Below are positions 1,640 to 64,000 of a DNA stretch of 64,000 bases, piece after piece. The DNA is from Arachis hypogaea. Taxonomy: Eukaryota > Streptophyta > Magnoliopsida > Fabales > Fabaceae. The DNA lies in contig NC_092040.1 of NCBI RefSeq assembly GCF_003086295.3, forward strand, positions 5,580,001 to 5,644,000, written 5' to 3'. Each line of letters opens with the position of its first letter. Position 1 is the first letter of the stretch. The notes under the pieces are model-generated. The model was not told where the DNA came from. It worked only from the letters and a program-made list of their open reading frames with translations, and made no database searches. Position numbers and translations under genes: made by a program.

Positions 1640-3563
1640 ATGACCGTCTCCTCTGAAAGGTAACATTTTTCATTCCAACGTTTCATTTGCAACCTTGTTG
1701 ATCAGTTCATTTGTTCCACAATTCGTGGAAATCGGGTATCTCTGTTAATCTCTTCATTCTTTTATTGTTTGTGCTCTTCTGCTTCTGAAGTTGCTCAAGA
1801 TTTCACATTTTTTAATGTTACATGTTTATGCTTCCTCAATGTAGAGTTTCTATACGGAAGTCGAAAGTTAATCCCTTTTCGTGTTCATTTATTGATTAAA
1901 TCACTCTATATTTTCATTAATGAGAAATTGTTCTCCTTGCATGCAAATGAATAAATAAAATAAAATAAAATAATAATGATAAATTGTGAATTGCTGCCAC
2001 TGCTCTGTTTTTTGTAGCTGAGATCAAGTTCATATAGAACAAAAGGGAGAGGATGTGGTTCAAGTTGTGCACACATAATTGATTATTATTTACTATTTAG
2101 CTTTGTTTTGTGTTTTGGAATTGAATACCAAGTTCATTTTTTTTGCTGATGAAATTAATTTTGAGCCACAAGGATGAAGCAAGGAGATTTGATTTATGTT
2201 TTTTGACTTTTTTCATAAATCCCAAATTGATGAATCTCCTATATTATTGAAGCCGTTGCCAATTTAAGGAATCTGCAATGAGTAACTATTCTTTGCCATT
2301 TATGATGAAGGATCTGTCAACAGTTTTTTATGTAGCAATCTTTTTCATAAAGTGTGACAATGCTATCTTCTTGTTAATTTTTAGGGGATGGCATGCATAT
2401 AGAAATGTCAAAGTATATGCTAAAAATCTTATTAGTTAATATAGACTATAAACTTATCTTGCCACACTTGTCTGTCTTATTCTGTGGCAGCAAGAATTCT
2501 CTCACCCAACTAGCTCCACTTGAGGCAGTGCTCTTTGATATAGATGGAACTCTCTGTGACTCTGATCCACTCCACTACTACGCTTTCCGTGAAATGCTCA
2601 AAGAGGTAGCATTTGATTTCTTGATAGAAAATATTTAGGGGTGAAAAATACTTAGAACATAGAGACTGTATAGTTTTCTAATTGAATATTACTTTTATCA
2701 TCATCATATTATAAATTATACATACACCTTGACAAAACACATCACAAATTTTAGAAAAACCAACAGAAACTATTGTGGTTTTCAGATTGGTTTCAATGGA
2801 GGTGTTCCTATAACAGAGGAATTTTTCATTGAGACTGTTGCCGGCAAGCACAATGATGATATTGCCTTGGCTCTCTTTCCTGGTGATCTTGAACGAGGCT
2901 TAAAGTTTGTAGATGACAAGGAAGACATGTTCCGGAAGTATATACTCTGCTAATGTAATTTTCCTTCTCATTGTTGTTTATTTTAAAATTCATAGTATAA
3001 TTCACTTGATGGACTGTACAGATTGGCAAAAGAGCAAGTAAAGCCATTGAATGGCCTTGATAAAGTGAGGGAATGGATTGAAAGTCATGGGCTGAAGCGA
3101 GCGGCAGTGACCAATGCTCCAAGAGCTAATGCAGAACTCATGATCTCATTGCTTGGTCTCTCAGACTTTTTTCATGCTGTCATTATTGGTGGAGAATGTG
3201 AACATGCCAAGCCTCATCCAGACCCCTACTTGAAAGGTCTTGAAGCTCTGAAAGCATCAAAGGATCACTCATTTGTATTTGAGGTCTGCAATGTTTATTC
3301 CCTTAACTAATTGGGAGAAGACTTTATTGCTGTTATTGAATCTAAATGATAATGACACAAATTCTGTTTTGTTATCATAGGATTCTGTTTCTGGGATCAA
3401 AGCTGGAGTGGCAGCTGGGATGCCTGTTGTAGGTTTAGCTACTCGAAACCCGGAGCATCTACTGATGGAAGCAAAGCCTGCCTTTCTGATTAAGGATTAT
3501 GCAGACCCAAAATTGTGGGAAGCTTTGGAAGAACTTGACAAGGCTGGTACTAAAAAAGTATGA
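1640..3563 (+). CDS. SGPP: HAD-superfamily sugar phosphatase, SGPP-like (copy 1, intact)
   Basis: Five exons give a 243-residue protein: 1640-1659, 2491-2605, 2786-2937, 3022-3283 and 3381-3563. All introns are GT-AG and all phases close. It is a haloacid-dehalogenase hydrolase of the beta-phosphoglucomutase-like group and resembles the plant sugar phosphatase SGPP, which dephosphorylates small sugar and polyol phosphates. Motif I is FDIDGT (nucleophile D23, acid/base D25). Motif II is AAVTNAP (T126). K159 lies in the CEHAKPHPDP segment, and motif IV is E183-D184 followed by SVSGIKAG. The length matches the family. Exon 1 encodes only six residues plus two bases and shows no targeting signal. 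A near-identical gene structure follows at 5720-7201, so this is a tandem duplication. The exact substrate cannot be read from sequence. Confidence 0.93.
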
Positions 3564-5719: not shown

Positions 5720-7201
5720 ATGACGACTTCTTCTGATACCTGCGTCGAAAGGTAAGGTTTCTCCTAAGCCATTGAATTGCTTCTTGAAGATCTAGCTGGT
5801 TTTGTCATCTGCAGTGAAGCAGGTTCTGCTTCATGCTTTGATTATTAGTATTGAGTTTAGTAGCCTTTAATTTTATACTTGCTTTAAACTTGTTTAACTG
5901 CTAAGATGCAAAGAATAATGGCAGTTTGGGACATGACAAATTTTATCATAGAAACTTTATGAATGTAGGCATATGTAGATTCAACCCAATTTTATGGTTT
6001 ATCACACTTTGTCATGTAGTTATTTCCTTCATTTTTTGTGGCAGCAAGGGTTCTCTTGCTAAACTAGCTCCCCTTGAGGCAGTGCTCTTTGATGTAGATG
6101 GAACTCTCTGTGACTCTGATCTGCTCCATTACTATGCTTTCCGCGAAATGCTCCAAGAGGTAGTGTGTTTGTTTTTGCTGGGTGAGTTTGTTATGGAGTG
6201 AAAATTGGGGTAGAAATTTTCAATCTTTGAATATTTGATTTGTGTTTTTTTATCTCTCAATTTCGTCTCCATACAAAATTCAAGATTAGTAGAACATTCT
6301 ATGCAAAAATATTTATTAAATGGAGAGAACATTGGGTTTCAACTGAATGTTCCATTTAGCATATTTTGAGTCACCTTGACAAAACACATGATCAATAGCT
6401 ATTATATAATCTGACAGAAACTTTGGTGGTTGTCAGATTGGTTACAATGGAGGTACTCCTATAACAGAGGAATTCTAGTGAGAATATTTCTGGCACACAC
6501 GATGAGGATGCTGCCTTGTTTCTCTTTCCTGACGACCGGGAACGGGGTTTGAAGTTCGTAGAAGATAAGGAAGCCATGTTCCGGAAGTAAATCTTCCTTT
6601 CTTTCCTTTTTTTTCCCCTTGTAGTTTTTCAAAGCTTAAAATGATTATTTATTCCCTTGATGGATTTACAGATGGGCAAAAGATCAACTAAAGCCTTTAA
6701 ATGGCCTCGATAAAGTGATTAAATGGGTTGAAGATCGTAGCCTGAAGCGCGCTGCAGTGACCAATGCTCCAAGACCGAATGCAGAGCTCATGATCTCAAA
6801 GCTTGGCCTCTCAGATTTCTTTGATGCTGTCATTATCGGTAGCGAATGTGAACATGGCAAGCCTCATCCAGATCCCTACCTTAAAGGTCTTGAAGCTCTC
6901 AAAGCATCAAAGGATCACACATTTATATTTGAGGTCTGCACTGTTCTTTACCTAAATGTTATTGGATTGTGGTATCGATAATTCTGCTTCTGCATTTGAC
7001 TTTCATTCTACTTTGTTGTCATAGGATTCTGTCTCGGGGATCAAAGCTGGAGTTGCTGCTGGGATGCCTGTTATAGGTATAACCAACCGGAATGCCGAGC
7101 ATTTACTGATGGAAGCAAAGCCTACCTTTCTGATTAAGGATTATGATGATCCAAAACTGTGGGCAGCTTTGGATGAACTTGACAAGGCTGGTGCTCGTTG
7201 A
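5720..7201 (+). pseudogene. SGPP-like HAD phosphatase copy 2, frameshifted in exon 3
   Basis: The exon pattern is the same as copy 1: 5720-5751, 6045-6159, 6437-6586, 6672-6933 and 7025-7201, all with GT-AG borders. Exon 3 is 150 nt against 152 nt in copy 1. A 2-base deletion near 6476 shifts the frame and gives an immediate TAG at 6476-6478. The normal product would stop after about 62 residues, just past motif I (FDVDGT). All later motifs are conserved out of frame (AAVTNAP, CEHGKPHPDP, SVSGIKAG), and splice sites and the final stop are intact, so the break is recent or could be a base-calling error. Because the flanking exons remain well preserved, I call it a young pseudogene and not a decayed relic. 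An upstream transit-peptide-like exon (5230-5402) could serve as an alternative start, but would meet the same stop. Confidence 0.8.
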
Positions 7202-23953: not shown

Positions 23954-24951
23954 TACAAAGTATTGCTTGTACTTTGTACAATAGAAGGTTGTATAAGATA
24001 CGTTGTATATTCTTTACAGCAAAACATGGGGCAAATGTGCGGCATTGTTGTGTGTGTTTCGTTCATGCAGTTCCAAAGCACTTACAATTTGTATGGTATG
24101 TGCTGACTGCTGATAACTGAGGAAGAGAAATCAAGTATTCAAGTCCCTGAAAGTCTGAAACTGTGTGACCCTCGCGGGTCTTAGATAAATTCAACTGGGC
24201 ATTTTTATCCTGGAAGACCTTGTTTGTAGGATATAGCTTTTCTTAAACATATCGAGACATACGAATTTAGATATAGCTCTTCTGGAAGAATGGCATCATA
24301 TAATATGGAAGAGTCCAGTGTAGTGATTAGTGAAGGTAGATTTTGAGGAATTTGCATCATAAGGTCAGGGCCTTTTTAGCATTAGACTCCATTACTCTCA
24401 ATTGATCCCAAAAAAAACGTTTAATGTTCTCTCCCGCATGTTAATTTTATATAGACAAATGTTGTATGGACATATAGATTGGCATCTGGATTGTTCTTGT
24501 TTTTTCTTATTTTAAAAGATCTAGATATGGTTTAATATGCATACTAAAAATACTTGCAACCTTGTAAATTTGTCTTCTACGATAATGTAATGCTTCCCTA
24601 GCTAAATTTAGTTAACGTTTTATATAAGATTGTTTCTTACTTTTAGCTTGCTTTCTAGTTAAGACCACGATCGGCAACGCACACTAATGGAAGTAATGAT
24701 GGTTTTTACAGCGTTAATAGATAATGCAAAGGAATAGTTTGTTGTGACGAAGAATTTAAACTAAATCGTTTGATGCAAATATACTGGAAATCACATCACG
24801 TGAACCAAGCCGTAATTAAAGTCCAATACAATGACCATTTGAAAGAAACTAATGTTGGGCTGTACAACCTAATTCTATGTGAGATTTAGAGGGGAATATG
24901 ATGATGGTAATGTGCATATAATAAAGAAAAGCATGAATCATATTAACATCT

Positions 24952-25024
24952 GCCCGTCTAGCTCAGTCGGTAGAGCGCAAGGCTCTTAACCTTGTGATCG
25001 TGGGTTCGAGCCCCACGGTGGGCG
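24952..25024 (+). tRNA. tRNA-Lys (anticodon CTT)
   Basis: A 73-base cloverleaf. The acceptor 5' strand GCCCGTC pairs with GGTGGGC (G-T and T-G pairs included), with discriminator G. The D arm is GCTCAGTCGGTAGAGC. The anticodon stem is CAAGG/CCTTG with loop CTCTTAA, anticodon CTT. The T arm is GTGGGTTCGAGCCCCAC. The internal A box (TAGCTCAGTCGG) and B box (GGTTCGAGCC) are intact, there is no intron, and no CCA is encoded, as expected for a nuclear gene. A T-rich stretch follows within 10 bases and could end Pol III transcription. Confidence 0.97.
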
Positions 25025-27196
25025 TTTATATTTTGTTAATTTTGTTACCTAACAAGTTGTATGCCTCCAATGTAACCGACAACACTTCAATTGGTTTACT
25101 GCGGCCTACAATAAAAATTAAACATGCATAGGTTTCAATTTCATAACATTATTTATTTTCTTTTGGCAGTGTTCATTACCTAGGTATGTTTTCATCAGAT
25201 TTTTTAATTTTGACTTTATGTATTCTTCTATTAGACAGACGAGGGGTGAAACTTTCTTGAGTTGCAAAAGATAAGGAGAGAAAACCTGCCATGACTATTA
25301 CCTTATACCAACATTATTCATTAGTATCATGAAATTAAAGCAGCATTGATTATAATTTAAGGGCTCAACAGTGACAATTCTGTATTTCTAAATAGAAGAA
25401 ACAAACAAAAGCAAAACCAAACTCAAAAGTGAAAATATACACACCAGGTCAATTAATTAGGTCAATAATGTGTGATTATGAAAGTAGGGCAACAAAAATA
25501 TATATGACATTAGAAACAAGAGAAGTAATGGTATTGCAGTAAAGTATACCAAACAAAATTGTATTAACTATAGCAGGACAAGGACACTTTCCTTAATTAG
25601 GCACTGTGGTATTTTGAATAATAGGTCTATTATAGTATTAATATGTGGTGTGCTTGTTATGCTAGCTAGTAGCTACTAGAATAATGCTCTCCAAGGTGTC
25701 AAAATTAAAAAATAGTAATTACTATATATGAAATGATGGAGCCTTTTGAAAACAACGAAGAAAGATAGCTGAGAATAATTATAGGATGGAGGAGACAGAG
25801 ATCTATGGAATGGTGATAATGTATGCATTTGTGGGACTTCCACTTTCTTCAAAGATAGCTAATAAGCTATGAAATGATTTTTCTTTTTTTCTTTTTATTC
25901 AAAATTGGAGCCTGCATATTAAATTGGTTTTCAAATAATTTTAAATTTTTATTTTTATTAGTATTTTAATTTTTTTTTAAATAGATTAATATCTTTATAA
26001 GAAAACAAATTAAAGATTTAATTATTTTATAATAAAATTTATTTATCTGATAAATATATTACAAGTTATATTAAAATAGACAAAGAGATTTACATGTGAC
26101 AAAAATAATTTTGACAATTTTGAGAATAATAAAATTTATTAAGATATTTACATGTGTACAAAATGTTAATGATGTCTCCATAGTTCGGCATAGAGGAGTG
26201 CTAGGGAGCAGGAAGTTTTGTAATTTGTAACCATCAATTAGCTATTATTGGTGATTTTAATGGTATGATATTTCATCCAAAAGTAGAAAATCATTCACTT
26301 TGCTTTTACTGATTAAGTGCTGACCAGATTTCAATATAATTGCTGGCCTAGACCTTTCCGTGCGGCATATTCTCTGTTTTTCTTTAGTCTTTTACTGGAT
26401 TTATGTGTTTATTTTCCTTTACTCCTCATCATGCATTTACTTCTTTGTCATATGACTGATTCTAAGTTTGGTGAAGAAACTCAGGTTTAATGTTTGATTA
26501 TGTGGAGCCAAACTTCTAGCTTGTAGGTTGGTGTGTACATTTAACTATCTTAAACAAGTTATTAACTATCACCTTCTAACTTAAAGGAATATATAAATTA
26601 AGAGTTAATTATATTACTTCCGGTAAAAAAAATAAAGAATAGAAAATAGTAGAAAAAATAGAGTAAAAACTAAAAATGTTATATCAAGAGAATAATGTTG
26701 TACAACATATATAAAAATTATACTTTTATCTAATTGATATACATAATTATTATTTTTTTGTTTTAATTCATGTATGTGTGTATTTATAACTGGACAACTA
26801 ATTTCAGATTCAAAGATTTAATATGAGTGAAATAATTTATATACGTTACATACATACATATGATAAAGAATTTAATTTATATTGTTAATATACTAAATTT
26901 TAAGATTAAGTTCATAAATCAAACAATCATTTATTATTATTTCTTTCTCAATATTAACGATTAAATAATATTCGTGTAATTCATAGGTTAGGAAAATGTT
27001 AAGAAATAAATCTGGTGATGAGAAATAATTAAACTTGAAACTGTAAGGATAGGATCTGCATGCATTAATTGGAACCTAGTCTGAAAATTCCCACCTTCCG
27101 TTTTCATATATTCACCGACCTATATATAGTACACATGACTCATGTGCCAAAAATCATATAGTAAAAGTAGCAATATTGCTATTATTACCAAAAAGC

Positions 27197-50572: not shown

Positions 50573-50580
<8 letters not shown>
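50392..50580 (+). mobile_element. tRNA-derived SINE copy
   Basis: The head GGTTGGTCGAGTGGTCAATT is tRNA A-box-like. It is followed by TTTAAGTAAGTGTGGGGAGTTTTAATTC (degenerate B box), CAACAATCCATTGATTAAC, TTAAATAAAGCTCATATCTGC and GATTAGTCATTAATC. It shares the block order with the copies at 46,398 and 39,363 and is the most complete of the three. Confidence 0.6.

Positions 50581-50610
<30 letters not shown>
50576..50610. repeat. (TA)n microsatellite
   Basis: About seventeen TA units directly downstream of a SINE copy. Confidence 0.95.
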
Positions 50611-52159: not shown

Positions 52160-52490
52160 CATGGGGTGCATCCAGACGTACTTCTGAAAGAACATACCAA
52201 GGGACCAATACCTCTTGTCATCTCTATCCCGATTTCCCACTAAACTCATCTCAATTGGGGATTCAAGGGACCTTATGACAAGAGTGTCATGGATGCCGAT
52301 ATGTTCTTTCTTTCCAATACTGGAACTTCTCATGGATCGGATCAGTTTCATTTCTGATAGGCAGGATCCTCAAGAACGAGGCAAGCCTAGAGCATACGTG
52401 AAACTAGTAAGCAAAGATAAGCATATTTGGGACTCAAGATTTCAGAGAGAGAGAGATTTAGAGAGTATTCATGGTGAATATCTTACAATG
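52160..52490 (-). repeat. Pararetrovirus leader copy C, at the left (distal) end of the array
   Basis: Nearly identical to leader copies B (59199-59515) and A (59527-59860). Similarity starts at 52160-52162, where the copies with a primer-binding site continue TGGTATCAGAGCC and this copy instead enters AT-rich host DNA. It includes the in-frame start of the leader reading frame (ATG at about 52351 on the minus strand). Confidence 0.9.
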
Positions 52491-52529
52491 GTTATATTGA
52501 AAGATCAAGTTCTGATTTTTACAATGGGA

Positions 52530-52552
52530 GAGCCCTCTATATATAGAGGCTC
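52530..52552 (-). promoter_or_regulatory. Pararetrovirus TATA region (copy 1 3' side)
   Basis: The core is CTCTATATATAGAG, flanked by GAGCC and GGCTC, so the whole site is close to palindromic. It lies about 370 bases upstream, in viral orientation, of the primer-site end of leader C. That is the expected position for the pregenomic promoter. Upstream are several GATAAG motifs, including an inverted pair GGATAAG/CTTATCC. Here it would drive transcription out of the left end into host DNA. Confidence 0.6.
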
Positions 52553-52829
52553 TTAGGTAGTGGAGGATAAGAAAGAATCTTATCCATCATTACAACAAGA
52601 CAAACAACTTTAAGCAAACTACTCAAATACAGACACATGGACTGCACTACTAAGAGATAAGAAGGAATCTTATCTTTGGTCACATCATGACAACTTTATC
52701 TCACATCACTCCTTTTTATGATTATAAAAGGACAAACTTACTTTATGTCACACCATATTCTACATGATTATAAAAGACAAAATACCATAATTATTTTTGG
52801 ACATCATAGTTGTTGCTGGGTCCCATTCT

Positions 52830-55800
52830 TCACGGACTGTATTTCGTAATGGGCTCATGTTCATCAATGTTATCCACAAGGTTATGTGGTCCTTCTGTGT
52901 ATTGATTCTCAGTGTCATCATCTTCAATTCCAGCATCCACATATGTAGGGCTTGGCAGTAGTGGATAGACCCTTGATCCTGGTTCTTCATCGTCAATGTT
53001 TTCATAGCCATACGTGGTTTGATCTACAAGAGGAGAATTCCATGGGTGTTCATTCTGGTGGAGTGGCGGGGTAGGATAAATCACAGATGAAGCAAGAAAA
53101 TTGGATTGGAATTCTCTTAATTCTTCTTGTATGGTCCTGGAAGAGGAAGCTTCCTCTTCTGATGGAAGTGAGAGTCCTTCAATGGGTCCTGTGAGAACAT
53201 CAACATTAGGATTGTTGTGGAAGGTGAGATGTTTGGCCAGATTGTTGAGACAGTGTTTCTCATCTGTTGGCCATATCTTTGAATAACCAACAATGTTAAA
53301 GTTATTTCTGGTGTAGAGGATCTCATTACGATAGGCAAATAGCCTTCTTAAGACAAAGGCATAATAAAACCTGTGTTTCAACCTATCAGGGATGTTCCAA
53401 ACATCATGATCTGTTAGTGCACTGAAGAGTTTTCCTCTCCAAAAAGGAATAGGTGCAAACATCTTAAGAAGTTTCTCAAGATTTGTTCCTGAGAAGCTCT
53501 TGTCACAGAGAAACCTGTACATAGCAATTCCAGGAACTATGATGGCGCAATCATACTGGACAGTGAGCGCCCACATGAACCACAGCATTTCTTCAGGAAT
53601 TTCACCTTTGATGATGGGTATGATATGATAAGGTGTTTTCGGGTGAAAGTGTTGAGGTTTTGCTGTGATTTGGGTAACAAGGAGGAGCCTGTGTAACCAG
53701 TAAAACAGGCATTCTTCAGCTAGGGTCTTGACCTCAGCAGCAGTCCTAGGTCGAAGGGAAAAAGGAAAAGGTCCAGGTTCTCTTCTATAGAACTTGTGGT
53801 CTTGAGGGCAGTCTGGAAGAGGGAAGGTTGGTGGTGAAGCTCTATCCATGGCTAGGATGTGAAGAACTTTGGGTGGAGGTTCTTTGGTTGGTCTGGAAAG
53901 GTAGTCAGCTATGGTGTTGTGGTGTCCTTTGATGTGTCTTACTGTGAATTTATAGCGTGAAAACCAATCTTTCCATCTTAGAAGTTGTGAGTTTGGTAGT
54001 ATCTTCCCTTTGGTATCCAGCATGGATGGAAAAGACGTATTGTCCATTTCCACAATGAAGTGATATGCACTCAAGTGAAAGCTGAACTTCTCGATTCCTC
54101 TTTTGACTGCAAGAATCTCCTTGTATGTAGCATGGTAGTGTTTTTCTGACTCCTTAAACTGTCCGCTAGCATGCGCACAGTAGTGTCTTGTTTCATCAAT
54201 CTCTTCAAGGAGAACAGCTCCCCAGTAGTTGTCACTAGCATCAGTTTGCAGGATGCGTTGTCCATTGCTAGGAATCTTTAATGGTGGGGGTTTCTGTGCT
54301 ACTTCTTTCAGGTGCTTGACAGCTGTCGTCTGTTCAGGACCCCAAGGTGGGGGTTGCTTTTTTAGTAGCTTTGACAATTGGCTTGTGTGTCTTGTCACAT
54401 CCGGAATAAAGTCACGGATGTAATTGATGATGCCTAAGAACTGTTGGACTTGTTTTGTTGTCAGGTGGTCATCAGGGAAGTTTAACAGTTCCTTTGAGAT
54501 GTGCTCTCCAGGCTGGAAAAACCCATTATTGAAAGTCATTCCCAAAAAATCAACTTGGGCTTGACCAATAAGGCTTTTCTTTTGAGATAGCATTATTCCA
54601 TATTTTTCCACAATTTCAGTAAACTGAATCAGAAGGGCCTGATGAGTTGGGCCGTCCTTTGAGAACAGTAGGATGTCATCTATGTAGATGAGAGCTGAGT
54701 GGAGTATGGGCTCAAAGATTCTGATCATAGTTTTTTGGAATAATGATGGGGCTACCTTTAGTCCAAATGGCATGACAGTCCATTGGTACTGTGCATCAGG
54801 TATGCAAAAGCCCGTCTTGTATCTGTCTTTGGGGTGAATACCCAATTGCCAAAATCCTACTTTAAGGTCAAACTTACTGAAAAGTTTAGCTTCACTAAGG
54901 CGAGGAGTTATGGCGTCAATCCTTGGTAGTGGAAACTTGTCATCTTGCAAGAAGAGGTTTAAGGGTTTGTAATCAATCACCAATCTCTTCTTTCCTCTAA
55001 TCTGTTCAGACCTCTTTTCCACATAGAATGCTTGGCATGCCCAGTTGGAAGTTGTTGGTTCAATTAAACCTTGCTTCAGTAACGAAGCGCATTCTTCCTT
55101 TGCTAACTTCAAATCTTCAGGATTCATTCCTGAATGGGTTGCCTTGGTAGGGTTGATGTCTTCATTCTTCTTGAAAGGCAATTGAATGAAGAACTCTTGA
55201 TTCTTCCATAAAGGAAGAGGGTGATCAAACTTGTCATGACTGTCACAACAAGCTTTTAGTAACCTGTTTTGGATAGCCTCATAGTCTGGAGGAGCCTTGC
55301 TAATTTCATAAATACCTCTGTTTTCGAGAAATGGCAAGAACTTCCTTTTGAATTTCAGACCTTCAGGCCATATTGACATCTCCTGCGTTTGGTAATATGC
55401 ATCAAAACCAAACAGTACATCTTTCTCAGGGAGGTAGCTTCCCAGAACCTTCAGCCAAATCACCATTTCAGGAAATATTTGTAGCCCAACATTTCCTCTA
55501 GAAATATGGTCAATGGTAAATCTTCCTTGGCTGGCTGTTGTGTAGATCTTGTCATGAGGAGCCCAAATTTCATCAGGTAACAGATCGGGCCTGACTACAG
55601 TTGCACAAGATCCTGTATCAAGCAGTGCTACGACCTTTTTTGGCACATCATACTTGGATGCCAAAAGTTTGAGTTTGAAGTGGGGTCGTTGGATTCCATC
55701 AATTCTTTTGGAACCTAAGCTTCCTAGACATCCTCCTTCTGTCATCCTTTGTTGAGGCGGAGCAGGTGCCATATAGTGGATTGGTCTGTAGTCATCATCA

Positions 55801-58800
55801 GAAGAACTATCTTCAGGATCATGAAGCATGTACTTCGTGTACTCATCTGCTTCTGACTGTTCTTCAAGGATCGATTCAAGATCTTCATCATCTCGGGTTA
55901 AGACAGCATCTTGTAAAGATTGAAGCATCTTGATTTCTCTTTTGCTTGTCTGCTTCTTATTGGGACATTTCTTGGCAAAGTGCCCAGTTTGTCCACAAAG
56001 AAAGCATTTGTTAGTTCGCTTGTCCTTGAAAGTCTTTTTTCTGAAGAACCGTTTCTTTCCTTTGAACTTTCTTCTTCTGCCGAAATAGCTTTGATCGAAA
56101 TCTGATCGTCTGGTTCTTCTGTAGTGGTGCTTCTTTTTTGTGTGGCAATCACATGAGTCTTTATCCTTGTATTTGATCTGCAGATAAGACTTTTTACATG
56201 CTCCCTTTAGTTTAAGGGAATTCTTGGCTAGCTGTTTGAACAAGTCTTGCTGGTTGCAGAGCTTGTCAAGAGCTGCTAGAGCCAATTGATAGATTTCTCC
56301 AAAGGTTATCGTTGGAATATCCTTCTGGTAAATGGCCATTGTTCTTCGTATCTCTGGTAGGAGCTCTTTTGGGAGTGAAGCAAGATACACTTCCTTAAGT
56401 GTTGAATTGCTCTGTCCTCCAAGAGGGTAGTATTTGGCCTGCATTCTTTTGAAATGTTTTTCCAGATCTTTCTTATTAAGTGAACAGCATTTCATCTCAT
56501 AGTATTCTTGGGAATTTCTCTGCTGGATAATCCCAATGTCTCCTAGGAATTCTCTATGCAATCTTCCTAGAAACTGAGCAGCACTTCCACCAGTGAGTTG
56601 CATACGCTCATACTCACTTAGCGTGTTTATCCATTCTCTAAGATTGCCAGTCATCCTGGTGACAAACTCAGAGAGTACTTGCTGGATATCTGCATTAGGG
56701 ATGGACATCTTGGTATCAATCCATGCTCCAAAATCATTCAACCTTTCTCTGTATTTGTGAGGAGGAAGGTTATCGAAAGTGAAATAATGGTTGCCTGCTT
56801 TCGTCTGAGTGGGCTTAGTCTGTGGGAGATCATCATCTTCTTCTTCTACGACTATTCCCTCTCCTTCTTCTTCTGAGGTTGGGTTAGCCTGATCAACCAT
56901 TGCTATTGCAGAAAGATCTGCAATTTGATCTTCTTCAGATGATTCTTCAACCGAAAAGTTTGACGAGTCAGACGTTACTTCTTCAAACGAGTCACTTGAA
57001 GTGACGTCTGCATTAATCATTCCGATTGTCCTCTTTTCTGGTACCTCTTCTTCTTTTCCTTTGGAAATTGCCTCAGTTTTTTCTCCAGAGATTTCTCCTC
57101 TGAGAAATTCTCTTTCTGACCATGGTGGATTATGCATCCTTTTTTGTGAAGGTCCTGTAGGTTGAACCGGGTGTGGCTTAGGCTTTGTGTGAAGTCGTCG
57201 GGCAAGATGGTAATGGGTTTTAAAGATGTTGTCATAGTCAGGCTCATTTATGGTTGGCTGCTGTGGAGGAATGTAAGTGGGTGTGTACATGGGATACTGT
57301 GGTGGATATAAGGCTAATGGATCTGTGGCCAAAGCTTGTGGCTTGGGTTGTCTGGCTTGATCTTGTTCAATCTGTCTGATCTGGGCCTTGATACGGGTAA
57401 GCTCTTGGTCCTTTTTTTGAAATTCTGGGCCAAAGTAATGGGTTTGGATGTAAGCTTTTAGGTCTTGGTCGAGTTTTTGGGCTTGTGTGGTCAATCTATT
57501 TTTTAGCTCCTCAACTTGTGTTTGGACTGAGTACACTTGTGAGGACAGGTTGTCTGTCTTTTCAACGAGTGTTTCCAAAGTGTGGTCGATTCTCAACAGG
57601 ACTTTGTTTTGGCTAACAGCATTTTCCGTTTGCCAATTCAGGACCTCATCTTGAGGTGAAGTTGACTGGACTCCTTGTGGAGTTACTCCTCTTGGGGCTA
57701 TGTATGGCCGTCGAGTAATCCTTTGACTGTCAGTGGAAACCTGTAGAGGAGGAAACTCTTGTTCATAAGGCTTGAGAGTTGCTATGCATGGTACAGCAAT
57801 AGGATCTGAGAACTGGGGCCTAAGGATCTTCTTTTTCTTCTTCCTTAGATAAAACTTTGGTGGTTCTTCCGGCTCATCTGGTGGATAGAACTTTGGAGGA
57901 GCAGTACAGCTCTGCTTCCTGTTCTTCTTGGACTTCTTCTTTTTGTAGTAGTCCTCATCTTCTGATTCTCCCCAAGCGTCACAGTCGCAATCTGAGTCAC
58001 ACATATTGTGATCAACATCCCATATGAAATGGCCATTGACGTGTGAGACATAGACTGGCTTTCCTTCCTCATAGTAGTGAATTGGGGGATCATCTTGATT
58101 GCTGGTATGTTGAACAGTGAGAGGAGAGATCATATAGATCCTCCTGGAGGATGACTGCCTAGAAAAGGATGGTCGTCGTTCTGTTCCTGGCCTTTGAAAA
58201 ACCGTTCTGACTGTTCCGTCAGTCTCTCGCGTGACCACTGGTGGTGATGTTGTTTGGACATCAGGAGTGCTTTGTGGAAAAGCTCTCTCATAGTTAGTAA
58301 TCCATTCTAGTGGCACTATGGCCGCTAGCTCATCTGGAGGAATCATCCTTGGAATATTAACTATGGCCGGACCATGGTTCTTGTCTGTGAACATCAAAAG
58401 AGCATCATGGGTGGTGTTTGGAAGATTCAGATCCAAGGCATGATCTTGGATTCTGTACAACACCTGGTGATGGAGTGTTGCCTCTTCAGCACTGGCGTCT
58501 TGTGTAACACCAATCAACTGAATTTGTATCCGGATCCTTTGGGAAAGGGTCGGATCTGTAAGCCTGATAGTGAAATCTGGCGAGATTGTAAGAATTACAC
58601 TTCCATTAGTGAGAGTGGATACAAGTGCTCCAATAAGTGCATGTTGGTATTCCTTGAAGGTAGTATCTAAAAGTGCAATCTTTGCGGTAACAGGTAGTCC
58701 TTTTCTGCCATGTAAGGTCAGAATCATCCTTATAGCTCCAAGGTGCAGGTGAGTATATCCTTGTGACAAGTATTCACGAATGAGTTCTTGAGGGATCTCA

Positions 58801-59390
58801 ATCGTAACATACTGTTCTGCAGAGGTGGCTTGAAGACCACACTGTTGTAAACGGGAAGTTTGAATCACTTCCTTAACAGGAGGTGATGATTCTCTTCTTA
58901 TGAGGTGGCGAATACTAAACTGCTTTTTTCGGTGGTAGAAAGAGTATGGATTTATGAGAGGTTGTTGAGTAGCAGTGATTTTTGAGTCTTCTGGTACATG
59001 GGTGATTTCAACAAGGTTTTCTATCTTGTTGGATAGGGTTTTATGGACAGATGGTGGTAAACGATCAAGAGAAAGCTCTATATTATGAAAGATAGGTTGG
59101 CTAGATTCAGGGTTTGACATGAATATTTCAAAGTCTCTCTTACTCTCTATTATCTCCAATATACCTTCTCTTTGCTTTAGTTCATTAGGCTCTGATACCA
59201 TGGGGTGCATCCAGACGTACTTCTGAAAGAACATACCAAGGGACCAATACCTCTTGTCATCTCTATCCCGATTTCCCACTAAACTCATCTCAATTGGGGA
59301 TTCAAGGGACCTTATGACAAGAGTGTCATGGATGCCGATATGTTCTTTCTTTCCAATACTGGAACTTCTCATGGATCGGATCAGTTTCAT
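52830..59390 (-). CDS. Pararetrovirus polyprotein, complete copy 1
   Basis: One uninterrupted frame of 2,186 codons from its first ATG at 59390. The ATG at 59199-59201 (codon 64), which overlaps the primer-binding site, is the likelier authentic start. Order: movement protein of the 30K type (about 190-330; YTHLHLGAIRMILTLHGRKG, LLDTTF); a long coiled coil (about 590-670); capsid (about 880-1100) with a Lys/Arg-rich tail; zinc knuckle C1129-C1132-H1137-C1142; aspartic protease (DTG at 1258); reverse transcriptase (YIDD at 1569-1572, motif A FDLK at 1507-1510); RNase H (D1717, D1783). A C-terminal extension of about 330 residues has no integrase or known domain. Motif A has Val1511 where the second copy has Ala, a position that is small or Ser/Ala in most relatives. 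No stop codon or frameshift was seen. Confidence 0.92.
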   Translation of the reverse strand: MKLIRSMRSSSIGKKEHIGIHDTLVIRSLESPIEMSLVGNRDRDDKRYWSLGMFFQKYVWMHPMVSEPNELKQREGILEIIESKRDFEIFMSNPESSQPIFHNIELSLDRLPPSVHKTLSNKIENLVEITHVPEDSKITATQQPLINPYSFYHRKKQFSIRHLIRRESSPPVKEVIQTSRLQQCGLQATSAEQYVTIEIPQELIREYLSQGYTHLHLGAIRMILTLHGRKGLPVTAKIALLDTTFKEYQHALIGALVSTLTNGSVILTISPDFTIRLTDPTLSQRIRIQIQLIGVTQDASAEEATLHHQVLYRIQDHALDLNLPNTTHDALLMFTDKNHGPAIVNIPRMIPPDELAAIVPLEWITNYERAFPQSTPDVQTTSPPVVTRETDGTVRTVFQRPGTERRPSFSRQSSSRRIYMISPLTVQHTSNQDDPPIHYYEEGKPVYVSHVNGHFIWDVDHNMCDSDCDCDAWGESEDEDYYKKKKSKKNRKQSCTAPPKFYPPDEPEEPPKFYLRKKKKKILRPQFSDPIAVPCIATLKPYEQEFPPLQVSTDSQRITRRPYIAPRGVTPQGVQSTSPQDEVLNWQTENAVSQNKVLLRIDHTLETLVEKTDNLSSQVYSVQTQVEELKNRLTTQAQKLDQDLKAYIQTHYFGPEFQKKDQELTRIKAQIRQIEQDQARQPKPQALATDPLALYPPQYPMYTPTYIPPQQPTINEPDYDNIFKTHYHLARRLHTKPKPHPVQPTGPSQKRMHNPPWSEREFLRGEISGEKTEAISKGKEEEVPEKRTIGMINADVTSSDSFEEVTSDSSNFSVEESSEEDQIADLSAIAMVDQANPTSEEEGEGIVVEEEDDDLPQTKPTQTKAGNHYFTFDNLPPHKYRERLNDFGAWIDTKMSIPNADIQQVLSEFVTRMTGNLREWINTLSEYERMQLTGGSAAQFLGRLHREFLGDIGIIQQRNSQEYYEMKCCSLNKKDLEKHFKRMQAKYYPLGGQSNSTLKEVYLASLPKELLPEIRRTMAIYQKDIPTITFGEIYQLALAALDKLCNQQDLFKQLAKNSLKLKGACKKSYLQIKYKDKDSCDCHTKKKHHYRRTRRSDFDQSYFGRRRKFKGKKRFFRKKTFKDKRTNKCFLCGQTGHFAKKCPNKKQTSKREIKMLQSLQDAVLTRDDEDLESILEEQSEADEYTKYMLHDPEDSSSDDDYRPIHYMAPAPPQQRMTEGGCLGSLGSKRIDGIQRPHFKLKLLASKYDVPKKVVALLDTGSCATVVRPDLLPDEIWAPHDKIYTTASQGRFTIDHISRGNVGLQIFPEMVIWLKVLGSYLPEKDVLFGFDAYYQTQEMSIWPEGLKFKRKFLPFLENRGIYEISKAPPDYEAIQNRLLKACCDSHDKFDHPLPLWKNQEFFIQLPFKKNEDINPTKATHSGMNPEDLKLAKEECASLLKQGLIEPTTSNWACQAFYVEKRSEQIRGKKRLVIDYKPLNLFLQDDKFPLPRIDAITPRLSEAKLFSKFDLKVGFWQLGIHPKDRYKTGFCIPDAQYQWTVMPFGLKVAPSLFQKTMIRIFEPILHSALIYIDDILLFSKDGPTHQALLIQFTEIVEKYGIMLSQKKSLIGQAQVDFLGMTFNNGFFQPGEHISKELLNFPDDHLTTKQVQQFLGIINYIRDFIPDVTRHTSQLSKLLKKQPPPWGPEQTTAVKHLKEVAQKPPPLKIPSNGQRILQTDASDNYWGAVLLEEIDETRHYCAHASGQFKESEKHYHATYKEILAVKRGIEKFSFHLSAYHFIVEMDNTSFPSMLDTKGKILPNSQLLRWKDWFSRYKFTVRHIKGHHNTIADYLSRPTKEPPPKVLHILAMDRASPPTFPLPDCPQDHKFYRREPGPFPFSLRPRTAAEVKTLAEECLFYWLHRLLLVTQITAKPQHFHPKTPYHIIPIIKGEIPEEMLWFMWALTVQYDCAIIVPGIAMYRFLCDKSFSGTNLEKLLKMFAPIPFWRGKLFSALTDHDVWNIPDRLKHRFYYAFVLRRLFAYRNEILYTRNNFNIVGYSKIWPTDEKHCLNNLAKHLTFHNNPNVDVLTGPIEGLSLPSEEEASSSRTIQEELREFQSNFLASSVIYPTPPLHQNEHPWNSPLVDQTTYGYENIDDEEPGSRVYPLLPSPTYVDAGIEDDDTENQYTEGPHNLVDNIDEHEPITKYSP
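59188..59200 (-). promoter_or_regulatory. tRNA-Met primer-binding site (B)
   Basis: Minus-strand TGGTATCAGAGCC is complementary to the 3' end of plant initiator tRNA-Met and is the standard minus-strand DNA priming site of Caulimoviridae. It overlaps an ATG (59199-59201) that opens the polyprotein in frame. Confidence 0.9.
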
Positions 59391-59515
59391 TTCTGATAGG
59401 CAGGATCCTCAAGAACGAGGCAAGCCTAGAGCATACGTGAAACTAGTAAGCAAAGATAAGCATGTTGGGGACTCAAGATTTCAGAGAGAGAGAGAGATTT
59501 AGAGAGTATTCATTA
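59199..59515 (-). repeat. Pararetrovirus leader copy B (truncated at its 5' side)
   Basis: Copy of the leader directly before polyprotein 1. On the minus strand, it begins immediately after primer site A (joined through TAATGAATACTC) and so lacks the promoter. Compared with copy A it has one extra GA in the GAGAGA run and an A/G difference near 59464. Confidence 0.85.
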
Positions 59516-59528
59516 GGCTCTGATACCA
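59516..59528 (-). promoter_or_regulatory. tRNA-Met primer-binding site (A), duplicate
   Basis: A second identical TGGTATCAGAGCC, 328 bp from site B. Its in-frame ATG (59527-59529) opens only a short frame that ends within leader B (stop at 59473-59475). Confidence 0.9.
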
Positions 59529-59860
59529 TGGGGTGCATCCAGACGTACTTCTGAAAGAACATACCAAGGGACCAATACCTCTTGTCATCTCTATCCCGAT
59601 TTCCCACTAAACTCATCTCAATTGGGGATTCAAGGGACCTTATGACAAGAGTGTCATGGATGCCGATATGTTCTTTCTTTCCAATACTGGAACTTCTCAT
59701 GGATCGGATCAGTTTCATTTCTGATAAGCAGGATCCTCAAGAACGAGGCAAGCCTAGAGCATACGTGAAACTAGTAAGCAAAGATAAGCATATTGGGGAC
59801 TCAAGATTTCAGAGAGAGAGAGATTTAGAGAGTATTCATGGTGAATATCTTACAATGGTT
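59527..59860 (-). repeat. Pararetrovirus leader copy A
   Basis: A full leader connected to the upstream promoter region of unit 2. It continues without a break into the TATA region and the end of polyprotein 2, as leader C does. Confidence 0.85.
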
Positions 59861-59896
59861 ATATTGAAAGATCAAGTTCTGATTTTTACAATGGGA

Positions 59897-59919
59897 GAGC
59901 CCTCTATATATAGAGGCTC
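59897..59919 (-). promoter_or_regulatory. Pararetrovirus TATA region upstream of the complete unit
   Basis: Same near-palindromic CTCTATATATAGAG core as at 52530-52552, offset by exactly 7,367 bp. In viral orientation it precedes leader A, both primer sites and the complete polyprotein, so it is the candidate pregenomic promoter for copy 1. Confidence 0.6.
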
Positions 59920-60196
59920 TTAGGTAGTGGAGGATAAGAAAGAATCTTATCCATCATTACAACAAGACAAACAACTTTAAGCAAACTACTCAAATACAGA
60001 CACATGGACTGCACTACTAAGAGATAAGAAGGAATCTTATCTTTGGTCACATCATGACAACTTTATCTCACATCACTCCTTTTTATGATTATAAAAGGAC
60101 AAACTTACTTTATGTCACACCATATTCTACATGATTATAAAAGACAAAATACCATAATTATTTTTGGACATCATAGTTGTTGCTGGGTCCCATTCT

Positions 60197-63100
60197 TCAC
60201 GGACTGTATTTCGTAATGGGCTCATGTTCATCAATGTTATCCACAAGGTTATGTGGTCCTTCTGTGTATTGATTCTCAGTGTCATCATCTTCAATTCCAG
60301 CATCCACATATGTAGGGCTTGGCAGTAGTGGATAGACCCTTGATCCTGGTTCTTCATCGTCAATGTTTTCATAGCCATACGTGGTTTGATCTACAAGAGG
60401 AGAATTCCATGGGTGTTCATTCTGGTGGAGTGGCGGGGTAGGATAAATCACAGATGAAGCAAGAAAATTGGATTGGAATTCTCTTAATTCTTCTTGTATG
60501 GTCCTGGAAGAGGAAGCTTCCTCTTCTGATGGAAGTGAGAGTCCTTCAATGGCTCCTGTGAGAACATCAACATTAGGATTGTTGTGGAAGGTGAGATGTT
60601 TGGCCAGATTGTTGAGACAGTGTTTCTCATCTGTTGGCCATATCTTTGAATAACCAACAATGTTAAAGTTATTTCTGGTGTAGAGGATCTCATTACGATA
60701 GGCAAATAGCCTTCTTAAGACAAAGGCATAATAAAACCTGTGTTTCAGCCTATCAGGGATGTTCCAAACATCATGATCTGTTAGTGCACTGAAGAGTTTT
60801 CCTCTCCAAAAAGGAATAGGTGCAAACATCTTAAGAAGTTTCTCAAGATTTGTTCCTGAGAAGCTCTTGTCACAGAGAAACCTGTACATAGCAATTCCAG
60901 GAACTATGATGGCGCAATCATACTGGACAGTGAGCGCCCACATGAACCACAGCATTTCTTCAGGAATTTCACCTTTGATGATGGGTATGATATGATAAGG
61001 TGTTTTCGGGTGAAAGTGTTGAGGTTTTGCTGTGATTTGGGTAACAAGGAGGAGCCTGTGTAACCAGTAAAACAGGCATTCTTCAGCTAGGGTCTTGACC
61101 TCAGCAGCAGTCCTAGGTCGAAGGGAAAAAGGAAAAGGTCCAGGTTCTCTTCTATAGAACTTGTGGTCTTGAGGGCAGTCTGGAAGAGGGAAGGTTGGTG
61201 GTGAAGCTCTATCCATGGCTAGGATGTGAAGAACTTTGGGTGGAGGTTCTTTGGTTGGTCTGGAAAGGTAGTCAGCTATGGTGTTGTGGTGTCCTTTGAT
61301 GTGTCTTACTGTGAATTTATAGCGTGAAAACCAATCTTTCCATCTTAGAAGTTGTGAGTTTGGTAGTATCTTCCCTTTGGTATCCAGCATGGATGGAAAA
61401 GACGTATTGTCCATTTCCACAATGAAGTGATATGCACTCAAGTGAAAGCTGAACTTCTCGATTCCTCTTTTGACTGCAAGAATCTCCTTGTATGTAGCAT
61501 GGTAGTGTTTTTCTGACTCCTTGAACTGTCCGCTAGCATGCGCACAGTAGTGTCTTGTTTCATCAATCTCTTCAAGGAGAACAGCTCCCCAGTAGTTGTC
61601 ACTAGCATCAGTTTGCAGGATGCGTTGTCCATTGCTAGGAATCTTTAATGGTGGGGGTTTCTGTGCTACTTCTTTCAGGTGCTTGACAGCTGTCGTCTGT
61701 TCAGGACCCCAAGGTGGGGGTTGCTTTTTTAGTAGCTTTGACAATTGGCTTGTGTGTCTTGTCACATCCGGAATAAAGTCACGGATGTAATTGATGATGC
61801 CTAAGAACTGTTGGACTTGTTTTGTTGTCAGGTGGTCATCAGGGAAGTTTAACAGTTCCTTTGAGATGTGCTCTCCAGGCTGGAAAAACCCATTATTGAA
61901 AGTCATTCCCAAAAAATCAACTTGGGCTTGACCAATAAGGCTTTTCTTTTGAGATAGCATTATTCCATATTTTTCCACAATTTCAGTAAACTGAATCAGA
62001 AGGGCCTGATGAGTTGGGCCGTCCTTTGAGAACAGTAGGATGTCATCTATGTAGATGAGAGCTGAGTGGAGTATGGGCTCAAAGATTCTGATCATAGTTT
62101 TTTGGAATAATGATGGGGCTACCTTTAGTCCAAATGGCATGACAGTCCATTGGTACTGTGCATCAGGTATGCAAAAGCCCGTCTTGTATCTGTCTTTGGG
62201 GTGAATACCCAATTGCCAAAATCCTGCTTTAAGGTCAAACTTACTGAAAAGTTTAGCTTCACTAAGGCGAGGAGTTATGGCGTCAATCCTTGGTAGTGGA
62301 AACTTGTCATCTTGCAAGAAGAGGTTTAAGGGTTTGTAATCAATCACCAATCTCTTCTTTCCTCTAATCTGTTCAGACCTCTTTTCCACATAGAATGCTT
62401 GGCATGCCCAGTTGGAAGTTGTTGGTTCAATTAAACCTTGCTTCAGTAACGAAGCGCATTCTTCCTTTGCTAACTTCAAATCTTCAGGATTCATTCCTGA
62501 ATGGGTTGCCTTGGTAGGGTTGATGTCTTCATTCTTCTTGAAAGGCAATTGAATGAAGAACTCTTGATTCTTCCATAAAGGAAGAGGGTGATCAAACTTG
62601 TCATGACTGTCACAACAAGCTTTTAGTAACCTGTTTTGGATAGCCTCATAGTCTGGAGGAGCCTTGCTAATTTCATAAATACCTCTGTTTTCGAGAAATG
62701 GCAAGAACTTCCTTTTGAATTTCAGACCTTCAGGCCATATTGACATCTCCTGCGTTTGGTAATATGCATCAAAACCAAACAGTACATCTTTCTCAGGGAG
62801 GTAGCTTCCCAGAACCTTCAGCCAAATCACCATTTCAGGAAATATTTGTAGCCCAACATTTCCTCTAGAAATATGGTCAATGGTAAATCTTCCTTGGCTG
62901 GCTGTTGTGTAGATCTTGTCATGAGGAGCCCAAATTTCATCAGGTAACAGATCGGGCCTGACTACAGTTGCACAAGATCCTGTATCAAGCAGTGCTACGA
63001 CCTTTTTTGGCACATCATACTTGGATGCCAAAAGTTTGAGTTTGAAGTGGGGTCGTTGGATTCCATCAATTCTTTTAGAACCTAAGCTTCCTAGACATCC

Positions 63101-64000
63101 TCCTTCTGTCATCCTTTGTTGAGGCGGAGCAGGTGCCATATAGTGGATTGGTCTGTAGTCATCATCAGAAGAACTATCTTCAGGATCATGAAGCATGTAC
63201 TTCGTGTACTCATCTGCTTCTGACTGTTCTTCAAGGATCGATTCAAGATCTTCATCATCTCGGGTTAAGACAGCATCTTGTAAAGATTGAAGCATCTTGA
63301 TTTCTCTTTTGCTTGTCTGCTTCTTATTGGGACATTTCTTGGCAAAGTGCCCAGTTTGTCCACAAAGAAAGCATTTGTTAGTTCGCTTGTCCTTGAAAGT
63401 CTTTTTTCTGAAGAACCGTTTCTTTCCTTTGAACTTTCTTCTTCTGCCAAAATAGCTTTGATCGAAATCTGATCGTCTGGTTCTTCTGTAGTGGTGCTTC
63501 TTTTTTGTGTGGCAATCACATGAGTCTTTATCCTTGCATTTGATCTGCAGATAAGACTTTTTACATGCTCCCTTTAGTTTAAGGGAATTCTTGGCTAGCT
63601 GTTTGAACAAGTCTTGCTGGTTGCAGAGCTTGTCAAGAGCTGCTAGAGCCAATTGATAGATTTCTCCAAAGGTTATCGTTGGAATATCCTTCTGGTAAAT
63701 GGCCATTGTTCTTCGTATCTCTGGTAGGAGCTCTTTTGGGAGTGAAGCAAGATACACTTCCTTAAGTGTTGAATTGCTCTGTCCTCCAAGAGGGTAGTAT
63801 TTGGCCTGCATTCTTTTGAAATGTTTTTCCAGATCTTTCTTATTAAGTGAACAGCATTTCATCTCATAGTATTCTTGGGAATTTCTCTGCTGGATAATCC
63901 CAATGTCTCCTAGGAATTCTCTATGCAATCTTCCTAGAAACTGAGCAGCACTTCCACCAGTGAGTTGCATACGCTCATACTCACTTAGCGTGTTTATCCA
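60197..64000 (-). CDS. Pararetrovirus polyprotein, second copy (N-terminal part beyond window)
   Basis: An open frame from the window edge to the stop at 60197, 1,267 residues, aligned without any indel to the last 1,267 residues of copy 1 (constant offset 7,367). It begins inside the capsid region (WINTLSEYER) and contains the zinc knuckle, protease, RT, RNase H and C-terminal extension. I count seven substitutions relative to copy 1. Five change the protein, including Val to Ala in RT motif A, Tyr to Cys before the basic capsid tail, and Pro to Ala in the C-terminal extension. The rest of the unit lies outside the window. Confidence 0.9.
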   Translation of the reverse strand, partial: WINTLSEYERMQLTGGSAAQFLGRLHREFLGDIGIIQQRNSQEYYEMKCCSLNKKDLEKHFKRMQAKYYPLGGQSNSTLKEVYLASLPKELLPEIRRTMAIYQKDIPTITFGEIYQLALAALDKLCNQQDLFKQLAKNSLKLKGACKKSYLQIKCKDKDSCDCHTKKKHHYRRTRRSDFDQSYFGRRRKFKGKKRFFRKKTFKDKRTNKCFLCGQTGHFAKKCPNKKQTSKREIKMLQSLQDAVLTRDDEDLESILEEQSEADEYTKYMLHDPEDSSSDDDYRPIHYMAPAPPQQRMTEGGCLGSLGSKRIDGIQRPHFKLKLLASKYDVPKKVVALLDTGSCATVVRPDLLPDEIWAPHDKIYTTASQGRFTIDHISRGNVGLQIFPEMVIWLKVLGSYLPEKDVLFGFDAYYQTQEMSIWPEGLKFKRKFLPFLENRGIYEISKAPPDYEAIQNRLLKACCDSHDKFDHPLPLWKNQEFFIQLPFKKNEDINPTKATHSGMNPEDLKLAKEECASLLKQGLIEPTTSNWACQAFYVEKRSEQIRGKKRLVIDYKPLNLFLQDDKFPLPRIDAITPRLSEAKLFSKFDLKAGFWQLGIHPKDRYKTGFCIPDAQYQWTVMPFGLKVAPSLFQKTMIRIFEPILHSALIYIDDILLFSKDGPTHQALLIQFTEIVEKYGIMLSQKKSLIGQAQVDFLGMTFNNGFFQPGEHISKELLNFPDDHLTTKQVQQFLGIINYIRDFIPDVTRHTSQLSKLLKKQPPPWGPEQTTAVKHLKEVAQKPPPLKIPSNGQRILQTDASDNYWGAVLLEEIDETRHYCAHASGQFKESEKHYHATYKEILAVKRGIEKFSFHLSAYHFIVEMDNTSFPSMLDTKGKILPNSQLLRWKDWFSRYKFTVRHIKGHHNTIADYLSRPTKEPPPKVLHILAMDRASPPTFPLPDCPQDHKFYRREPGPFPFSLRPRTAAEVKTLAEECLFYWLHRLLLVTQITAKPQHFHPKTPYHIIPIIKGEIPEEMLWFMWALTVQYDCAIIVPGIAMYRFLCDKSFSGTNLEKLLKMFAPIPFWRGKLFSALTDHDVWNIPDRLKHRFYYAFVLRRLFAYRNEILYTRNNFNIVGYSKIWPTDEKHCLNNLAKHLTFHNNPNVDVLTGAIEGLSLPSEEEASSSRTIQEELREFQSNFLASSVIYPTPPLHQNEHPWNSPLVDQTTYGYENIDDEEPGSRVYPLLPSPTYVDAGIEDDDTENQYTEGPHNLVDNIDEHEPITKYSP

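What the first reader, a model, noticed from the sequence alone, without database searches (positions are those of the whole stretch)
52160..64000. Tandem petuvirus-like endogenous pararetrovirus with one uninterrupted polyprotein frame
Most integrated plant pararetroviruses are rearranged and full of stop codons. Here a complete single frame of over 2,100 codons carries all expected domains, is preceded by a promoter-like region and primer site, and is followed by a second unit in the same orientation. Head-to-tail arrays let transcription start in one unit and run through the next, giving a terminally redundant RNA. I do not recognise the specific virus; only its plan matches Petuvirus.
Basis: partly seen in the sequence, partly recalled or inferred. 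Interest (0 to 1): 0.75.

Follow-up and report, generated by a model that had tools for sequence, protein, structure and literature searches.

The report
Tandem endogenous plant virus in peanut
A peanut-type chromosome carries copies of a petunia-vein-clearing-like DNA virus joined head to tail, one of them complete with an unbroken gene: a recent example of a known kind of viral fossil that could in principle still be transcribed.

Summary
Observation confirmed, with corrections. On the minus strand, 52160-59513 is one complete caulimovirid unit with an unbroken frame (52830-59390, 2186 codons); 59514-64000 is the 3' part of a second unit, 99.8% identical over 4474 bp and open to the window edge. 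Movement protein, CCHC knuckle, DTG protease motif, RT and RNase H are present; no integrase was found. The RT scores better against CaMV than Ty3 and groups with Arachis and Neltuma proteins. The host is Arachis. Added here: the likely start is codon 91 (59120; about 2096 aa), placed as in the petuvirus AcV1; the unit-unit junction carries an extra 328-bp leader copy joined at a 5-nt microhomology; the array ends at the tRNA-primer site. That fits integration of reverse-transcription products better than an exact circular repeat. A shunt-like leader appeared in 2 of 3 folds only. Petuvirus-like RTs in Arachis were already reported (PMC9794742), so this is a new member of a known kind. PVCV itself could not be compared; activity is untested.

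The parts
52160..59513 (-). Unit 1, complete: leader B, polyprotein, promoter, leader C; left edge 52159/52160 is the host junction
   Evidence: self-comparison; sequence
59514..64000 (-). Unit 2, 3' part only (window ends), 99.80% identical to unit 1 over 4474 bp, frame open from 64000 to stop at 60197
52830..59390 (-). Unbroken polyprotein frame, 2186 codons; conserved start probably codon 91 at 59120 (2096 aa)
   Evidence: start compared with AcV1
58422..58769 (-). Movement protein domain (PF01107, 6.7e-12)
55965..56006 (-). CCHC zinc knuckle (capsid-protein region; no capsid Pfam model matched)
55608..55622 (-). Aspartic protease motif LDTGS
   Evidence: motif only; no Pfam protease hit
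54531..55016 (-). Reverse transcriptase (PF00078, 4.3e-29), YIDD at 54675-54686
53952..54344 (-). RNase H (PF17919, PF17917) with TDAS, YKE, MDN motifs
52833..53780 (-). C-terminal piece after RNase H; about 120 residues (53271-53630) predicted with pLDDT 76-93, no Pfam match and no PDB match at E<=0.001
59905..59912 (-). TATA box of the internal promoter (other copy 52538-52545)
   Evidence: function inferred
59514..59841 (-). Leader copy A (3' end of unit 2) with uORFs at 59839-59825 and 59791-59771 and a predicted stem-loop 59761-59534
59186..59513 (-). Leader copy B (5' leader of unit 1), the extra 328-bp copy; joined to A at microhomology ATGAA (59509-59513)
   Evidence: sequence
52160..52472 (-). 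Leader copy C (3' end of unit 1), cut at the primer site by host DNA
59516..59528 (-). Primer binding site A, TGGTATCAGAGCC (Met-tRNA type)
   Evidence: same sequence as the AcV1 site
59188..59200 (-). Primer binding site B; its first base lies 80 nt before the codon-91 ATG

Best explanation
This is a recently integrated, petuvirus-type endogenous caulimovirid in an Arachis chromosome, present as a head-to-tail array of at least two units on the minus strand. Shown: anatomy, intact frame and motifs, near-identity of units, end at the primer site, duplicated leader with microhomology. Inferred: reverse transcription of a terminally redundant RNA started at the Met-tRNA site and gave linear DNA with leader at both ends (or a dimeric cDNA by template switching), and host break repair (microhomology end joining) put it into AT-rich DNA. 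Inferred too: the internal promoter at about 59.9 kb can transcribe unit 1 and end in the 3' leader copy at about 52.5 kb, giving a greater-than-unit RNA; ribosomes would pass the leader, perhaps by shunting, and start the polyprotein at codon 91. In unit 1 that RNA would carry two leaders in a row.
For: ORF and tandem; domains in caulimovirid order, no integrase; RT-RNase H matches CaMV better than Ty3 and groups with Arachis and Neltuma proteins; BFVD top entry 68% identical, then 41% and 33%, and that same unnamed entry is the only E<=0.001 match of the C-terminal piece (14% identity). 6 of 120 listed RT relatives carry the MP domain with RT and/or RNase H in one protein, and none of the 120 lists an integrase core domain. 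MP piece 98% identical over 71% to a peanut protein cluster of 22 members. Start at nt 81 after the primer site as in AcV1. Host: joined exons 100% identical over 99% to A. duranensis and A. ipaensis proteins. (TA)17.5 at 50576-50610, flank GC 0.15-0.18, as a review describes for such loci.
Against: PVCV was not compared. Genome length 7039 bp is just under the 7.1-9.8 kbp ICTV range. No AATAAA in the two promoter-leader stretches scanned. The leader fold is only moderately better than shuffles (z -1.86, 2 of 100 as good), and the shunt layout appears in the folds of copies A and C but not of copy B, whose basal stem takes in the uORF. Leaders B and C differ by 2 substitutions and a 2-nt gap, whereas two ends of one molecule should start identical. 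The right end is outside the window and no reads or RNA were available.
Confidence: 0.9

Rival explanations
1. A caulimovirid of another or new genus (florendovirus-like or unnamed), not Petuvirus.
For: No PVCV sequence could be compared; the best named caulimovirid match in BFVD is Vaccinivirus at 33%, and the two better entries are unnamed.
Against: Single polyprotein ORF (petuviruses and vacciniviruses per ICTV); start at nt 81 after the primer site as in AcV1; a 68% RT match whose C-terminal region also matches; Petuvirus RT clusters that include Arachis.
Confidence: 0.1
2. Assembly artefact: episomal or collapsed repeats wrongly joined in tandem.
For: No reads available; near-identical repeats are hard to assemble.
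Against: 9 substitutions between units, a junction with a 328-bp duplication, and a host junction at the primer site.
Confidence: 0.06
3. Array grew by unequal crossing-over or homologous recombination after integration, and the leader duplication is a separate event.
For: A route named in reviews for such arrays (passages and section); 99.8% identity fits; leaders B and C are not identical.
Against: Crossing-over alone would give an exact 7039-bp period; the extra leader sits at the unit junction and runs from near the predicted RNA 5' end to just past the primer site.
Confidence: 0.3
4. Ty3-type LTR retrotransposon.
For: Unit 1 is flanked by two leader/promoter copies, LTR-like; a Met-tRNA primer site also occurs in retrotransposons (recalled).
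Against: No integrase, a movement protein, CaMV preferred over Ty3 by about 86 bits.
Confidence: 0.02

Closest known systems
Petunia vein clearing virus and its endogenous form (Petuvirus)
   Same: Single polyprotein ORF, 7.2 kbp genome, a region after RNase H, tandem head-to-tail proviruses (passages of PMC7496347, and of PMC10377300)
   Different: Other host; activity unknown here; leader doubled at the junction; sequence not compared
Aristotelia chilensis virus 1 (AcV1)
   Same: Same primer-site sequence, ORF start 80 nt after it, 7.1 kb (passages of PMC4411674)
   Different: AcV1 is split into ORFs and reported as single copy; here one frame and a tandem
Petuvirus RT clusters that include Arachis, de Tomas and Vicient 2022
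   Same: Petuvirus-01 and -06 name Arachis (passages and discussion of PMC9794742)
   Different: RT domains only; hits within 1500 bp of another dropped; whether this element is in either cluster was not tested
Arachis hypogaea, Stylosanthes and Neltuma database proteins (P0241-P0246, P0001, P0003)
   Same: Same domains; 62-98% identity in the MP piece, 76-81% in RT
   Different: Gene-model fragments; C-terminal piece only 39% identical to P0001

Membership tests
Caulimoviridae | RT-RNase H nearer caulimovirids than Ty3 | tested here: met
   5.1e-86 CaMV vs 6.2e-60 Ty3. The tree is drawn with a midpoint root and one CaMV and one Ty3 row, so it does not by itself decide this
Caulimoviridae | Movement protein, aspartic protease, RT, RNase H; no integrase | tested here: met
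   (protease by motif only)
Caulimoviridae | Met-tRNA primer site | tested here: met
Caulimoviridae | Genome 7.1-9.8 kbp | tested here: inconclusive
   7039 bp inferred from period minus duplication, marginally short of the range
Caulimoviridae | Shunt-type leader (uORF ending in front of a stem-loop) | tested here: inconclusive
   present in 2 of 3 leader folds (A, C), not in B; z -1.86 for A
Caulimoviridae | Episomal circular DNA with strand discontinuities, virions | not testable with these tools
   needs plant material
Petuvirus | One ORF | tested here: met
   ICTV profile text read whole
Petuvirus | RT groups with PVCV | not tested
   no relative found in viral contigs; BFVD top entry unnamed
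Petuvirus | Isometric virions | not testable with these tools
   none
Metaviridae (Ty3) | Integrase in pol | tested here: not met
Metaviridae (Ty3) | Target-site duplication | not testable with these tools
   right end beyond the window

The most novel reading that the evidence does not exclude
The array is a latent, transcribable petuvirus provirus of peanut whose dimer was made by reverse transcription itself (template switch near the RNA 5' end back to the primer-site region), so the junction is a fossil of concatemer formation; and the primer site lies inside translated sequence in this legume lineage.
Probability: 0.15. Interest if true: 0.65.

Novelty: new member of a known kind. Interest (0 to 1): 0.35.

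Why it matters
The review seen names only three kinds of infective endogenous caulimovirid (banana streak viruses, PVCV, tobacco vein clearing virus; passage). An intact, near-identical tandem in a crop genus is a candidate to watch in peanut breeding and virus diagnostics, and its junction offers a testable record of how such arrays form.

Tried and rejected
LTR retrotransposon: rejected (no integrase, movement protein present). Chance ORF: rejected. Further viral remnants in the rest of the window: MP and RT pieces against 1-52159 gave nothing below E 2; other pieces were not tried. Relatives in viral contigs: none by single sequence; with an alignment 185 stretches matched a pattern and none was confirmed. 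The RT model was of middling confidence (pLDDT 67.8) and its BFVD matches have low TM-scores, so only the sequence identities were used. C-terminal piece: no PDB match at E<=0.001 and one BFVD match; MP piece against PDB sequences: nothing below E 0.4. A start at the AUG overlapping the primer site (codon 64) was considered: of 9 relatives aligned there among the 18 of 120 given to, 8 have V and 1 (P0275) has M; and 6 of 120 listed relatives begin exactly at codon 91. Coding upstream of codon 91: 96 open codons (0.13% of 20000 mononucleotide shuffles do as well) and in-frame length differences in relatives favour it, but gene models are chosen for open frames, so it stays open. Literature: searches were seen as capped listings; the only listed paper I found treating Arachis caulimovirids was PMC9794742. 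Searches added nothing used.

Full report
What is there. Reading the minus strand, the window holds the 3' 4.5 kb of one viral unit (64000 down to 59514) followed without spacer by a complete second unit (59513 to 52160), then AT-rich host DNA. The complete unit has one frame of 2186 codons, 52830-59390; the other five frames of that stretch carry 101 to 182 stops. The partial unit is open for 1267 codons to the window edge. The two match at 99.80% over 4474 bp with 9 substitutions and no gaps: 2 non-coding, 4 synonymous, 3 non-synonymous. With 21% of possible changes synonymous, 4 of 7 is a mild excess (P = 0.039), so some differences may predate integration. If all were later, 0.2% divergence would mean roughly a hundred thousand years at about 8e-9 per site per year (rate recalled).

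Domains. Contiguous and overlapping pieces gave movement protein, CCHC knuckle, RT and RNase H above Pfam cut-offs and no integrase; motif scans add LDTGS and intact YIDD, TDAS, YKE and MDN. The RT-RNase H hits CaMV RT at 5.1e-86 and Ty3 at 6.2e-60. Of 678 related proteins 120 were listed; 6 of 120 carry the MP domain together with RT and/or RNase H (5 with the RT model, 1 with RNase H only), and none lists an integrase core domain (the Pfam number looked for is recalled). In a tree of 44 of those 120 (76 dropped for under 95% coverage) with CaMV and Ty3, the element pairs with a peanut protein (100/98), then a Neltuma alba protein (100/99); the element and its 44 relatives, most but not all from named plants, stand apart from CaMV and Ty3 (100/99). 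The root there is a midpoint and the outgroups are one row each. In BFVD the top entry is 68% identical over 393 columns, the next 41% and 33%; the same top entry, unnamed in the tables, is the only E<=0.001 match of the C-terminal piece, at 14% identity.

Host and relatives. A neighbouring gene, exons joined, is 100% identical over 99% of the query to TOM2A of Arachis duranensis and A. ipaensis. The N-terminal 520-aa piece finds a peanut cluster of 22 members at 98% over 71%, and, among the ten best hits, other peanut and Stylosanthes proteins at 61-85%. So this virus family is probably multicopy in peanut (the 22 may come from several assemblies), and related lineages exist. De Tomas and Vicient (passages and discussion read) name Arachis in two Petuvirus RT clusters.

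Ends and junction. The left end, 52160, lies 2 nt inside the primer site TGGTATCAGAGCC, next to where minus-strand DNA begins (inference from the caulimovirid cycle; ICTV profile). At the unit junction the leader is present twice (A 59514-59841, B 59186-59513). The join is at ATGAA, shared between the sequence just after the primer site and the leader about 40 nt below the predicted RNA start. Unit 1 thus runs from near the RNA 5' end to the primer site with about 315 bp of leader at both ends. That is what over-run minus-strand synthesis, or a template switch giving a dimer, would leave; exact rolling-circle or crossing-over products would not add 328 bp. This step is inference, and B and C differ by 2 substitutions and a 2-nt gap, which the one-molecule version must put down to later change.

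Leader and translation. A TATA box at 59912 puts the RNA start near 59880 (inferred). The leader has short uORFs; in copies A and C a 6-codon uORF stops 9 nt before a stem-loop of about 228 nt (pairing probability 0.6 at the outermost pair, about 0.8 just inside), the layout described for pararetroviruses (passages of PMC5902531). Copy B, folded with its own shorter 5' side and the downstream sequence, gave another basal stem that takes in that uORF, and overall fold strength is moderate (z -1.86); so shunting is plausible, not established. The ATG at 59120, 80 nt after the primer site, matches the AcV1 start (passages), and 6 of 120 relatives begin exactly there. The frame is also open for 96 codons upstream, across the primer site, and some Arachis, Stylosanthes and metagenome relatives align there; whether it is translated is open. 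In the doubled leader, the long ORF of copy A ends inside copy B (59473), so translation of unit 1 from the internal promoter would have to cross two leaders.

Verdict. Ordinary in kind, unusually intact in condition: a recent petuvirus-type endogenous caulimovirid array in Arachis.

Noticed in passing
59121-59408: Frame upstream of the conserved start stays open through the primer site for 96 codons and aligns in some legume relatives
   Followed up: partly
53271-53630: After RNase H, about 120 residues are predicted with pLDDT 76-93 but match no solved structure at E<=0.001; the C-terminal piece is 39% identical to the nearest peanut lineage against 81% for RT
   Followed up: partly
50576-50610: (TA)17.5 run 1.5 kb from the array end
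   Followed up: no
2378-3310 and 5905-6981: Two similar host gene pieces on the plus strand, HAD-phosphatase-like by recall, apparently a local duplication (translations)
   Followed up: no
24951-25025: tRNA-Lys (CTT) gene
   Followed up: no
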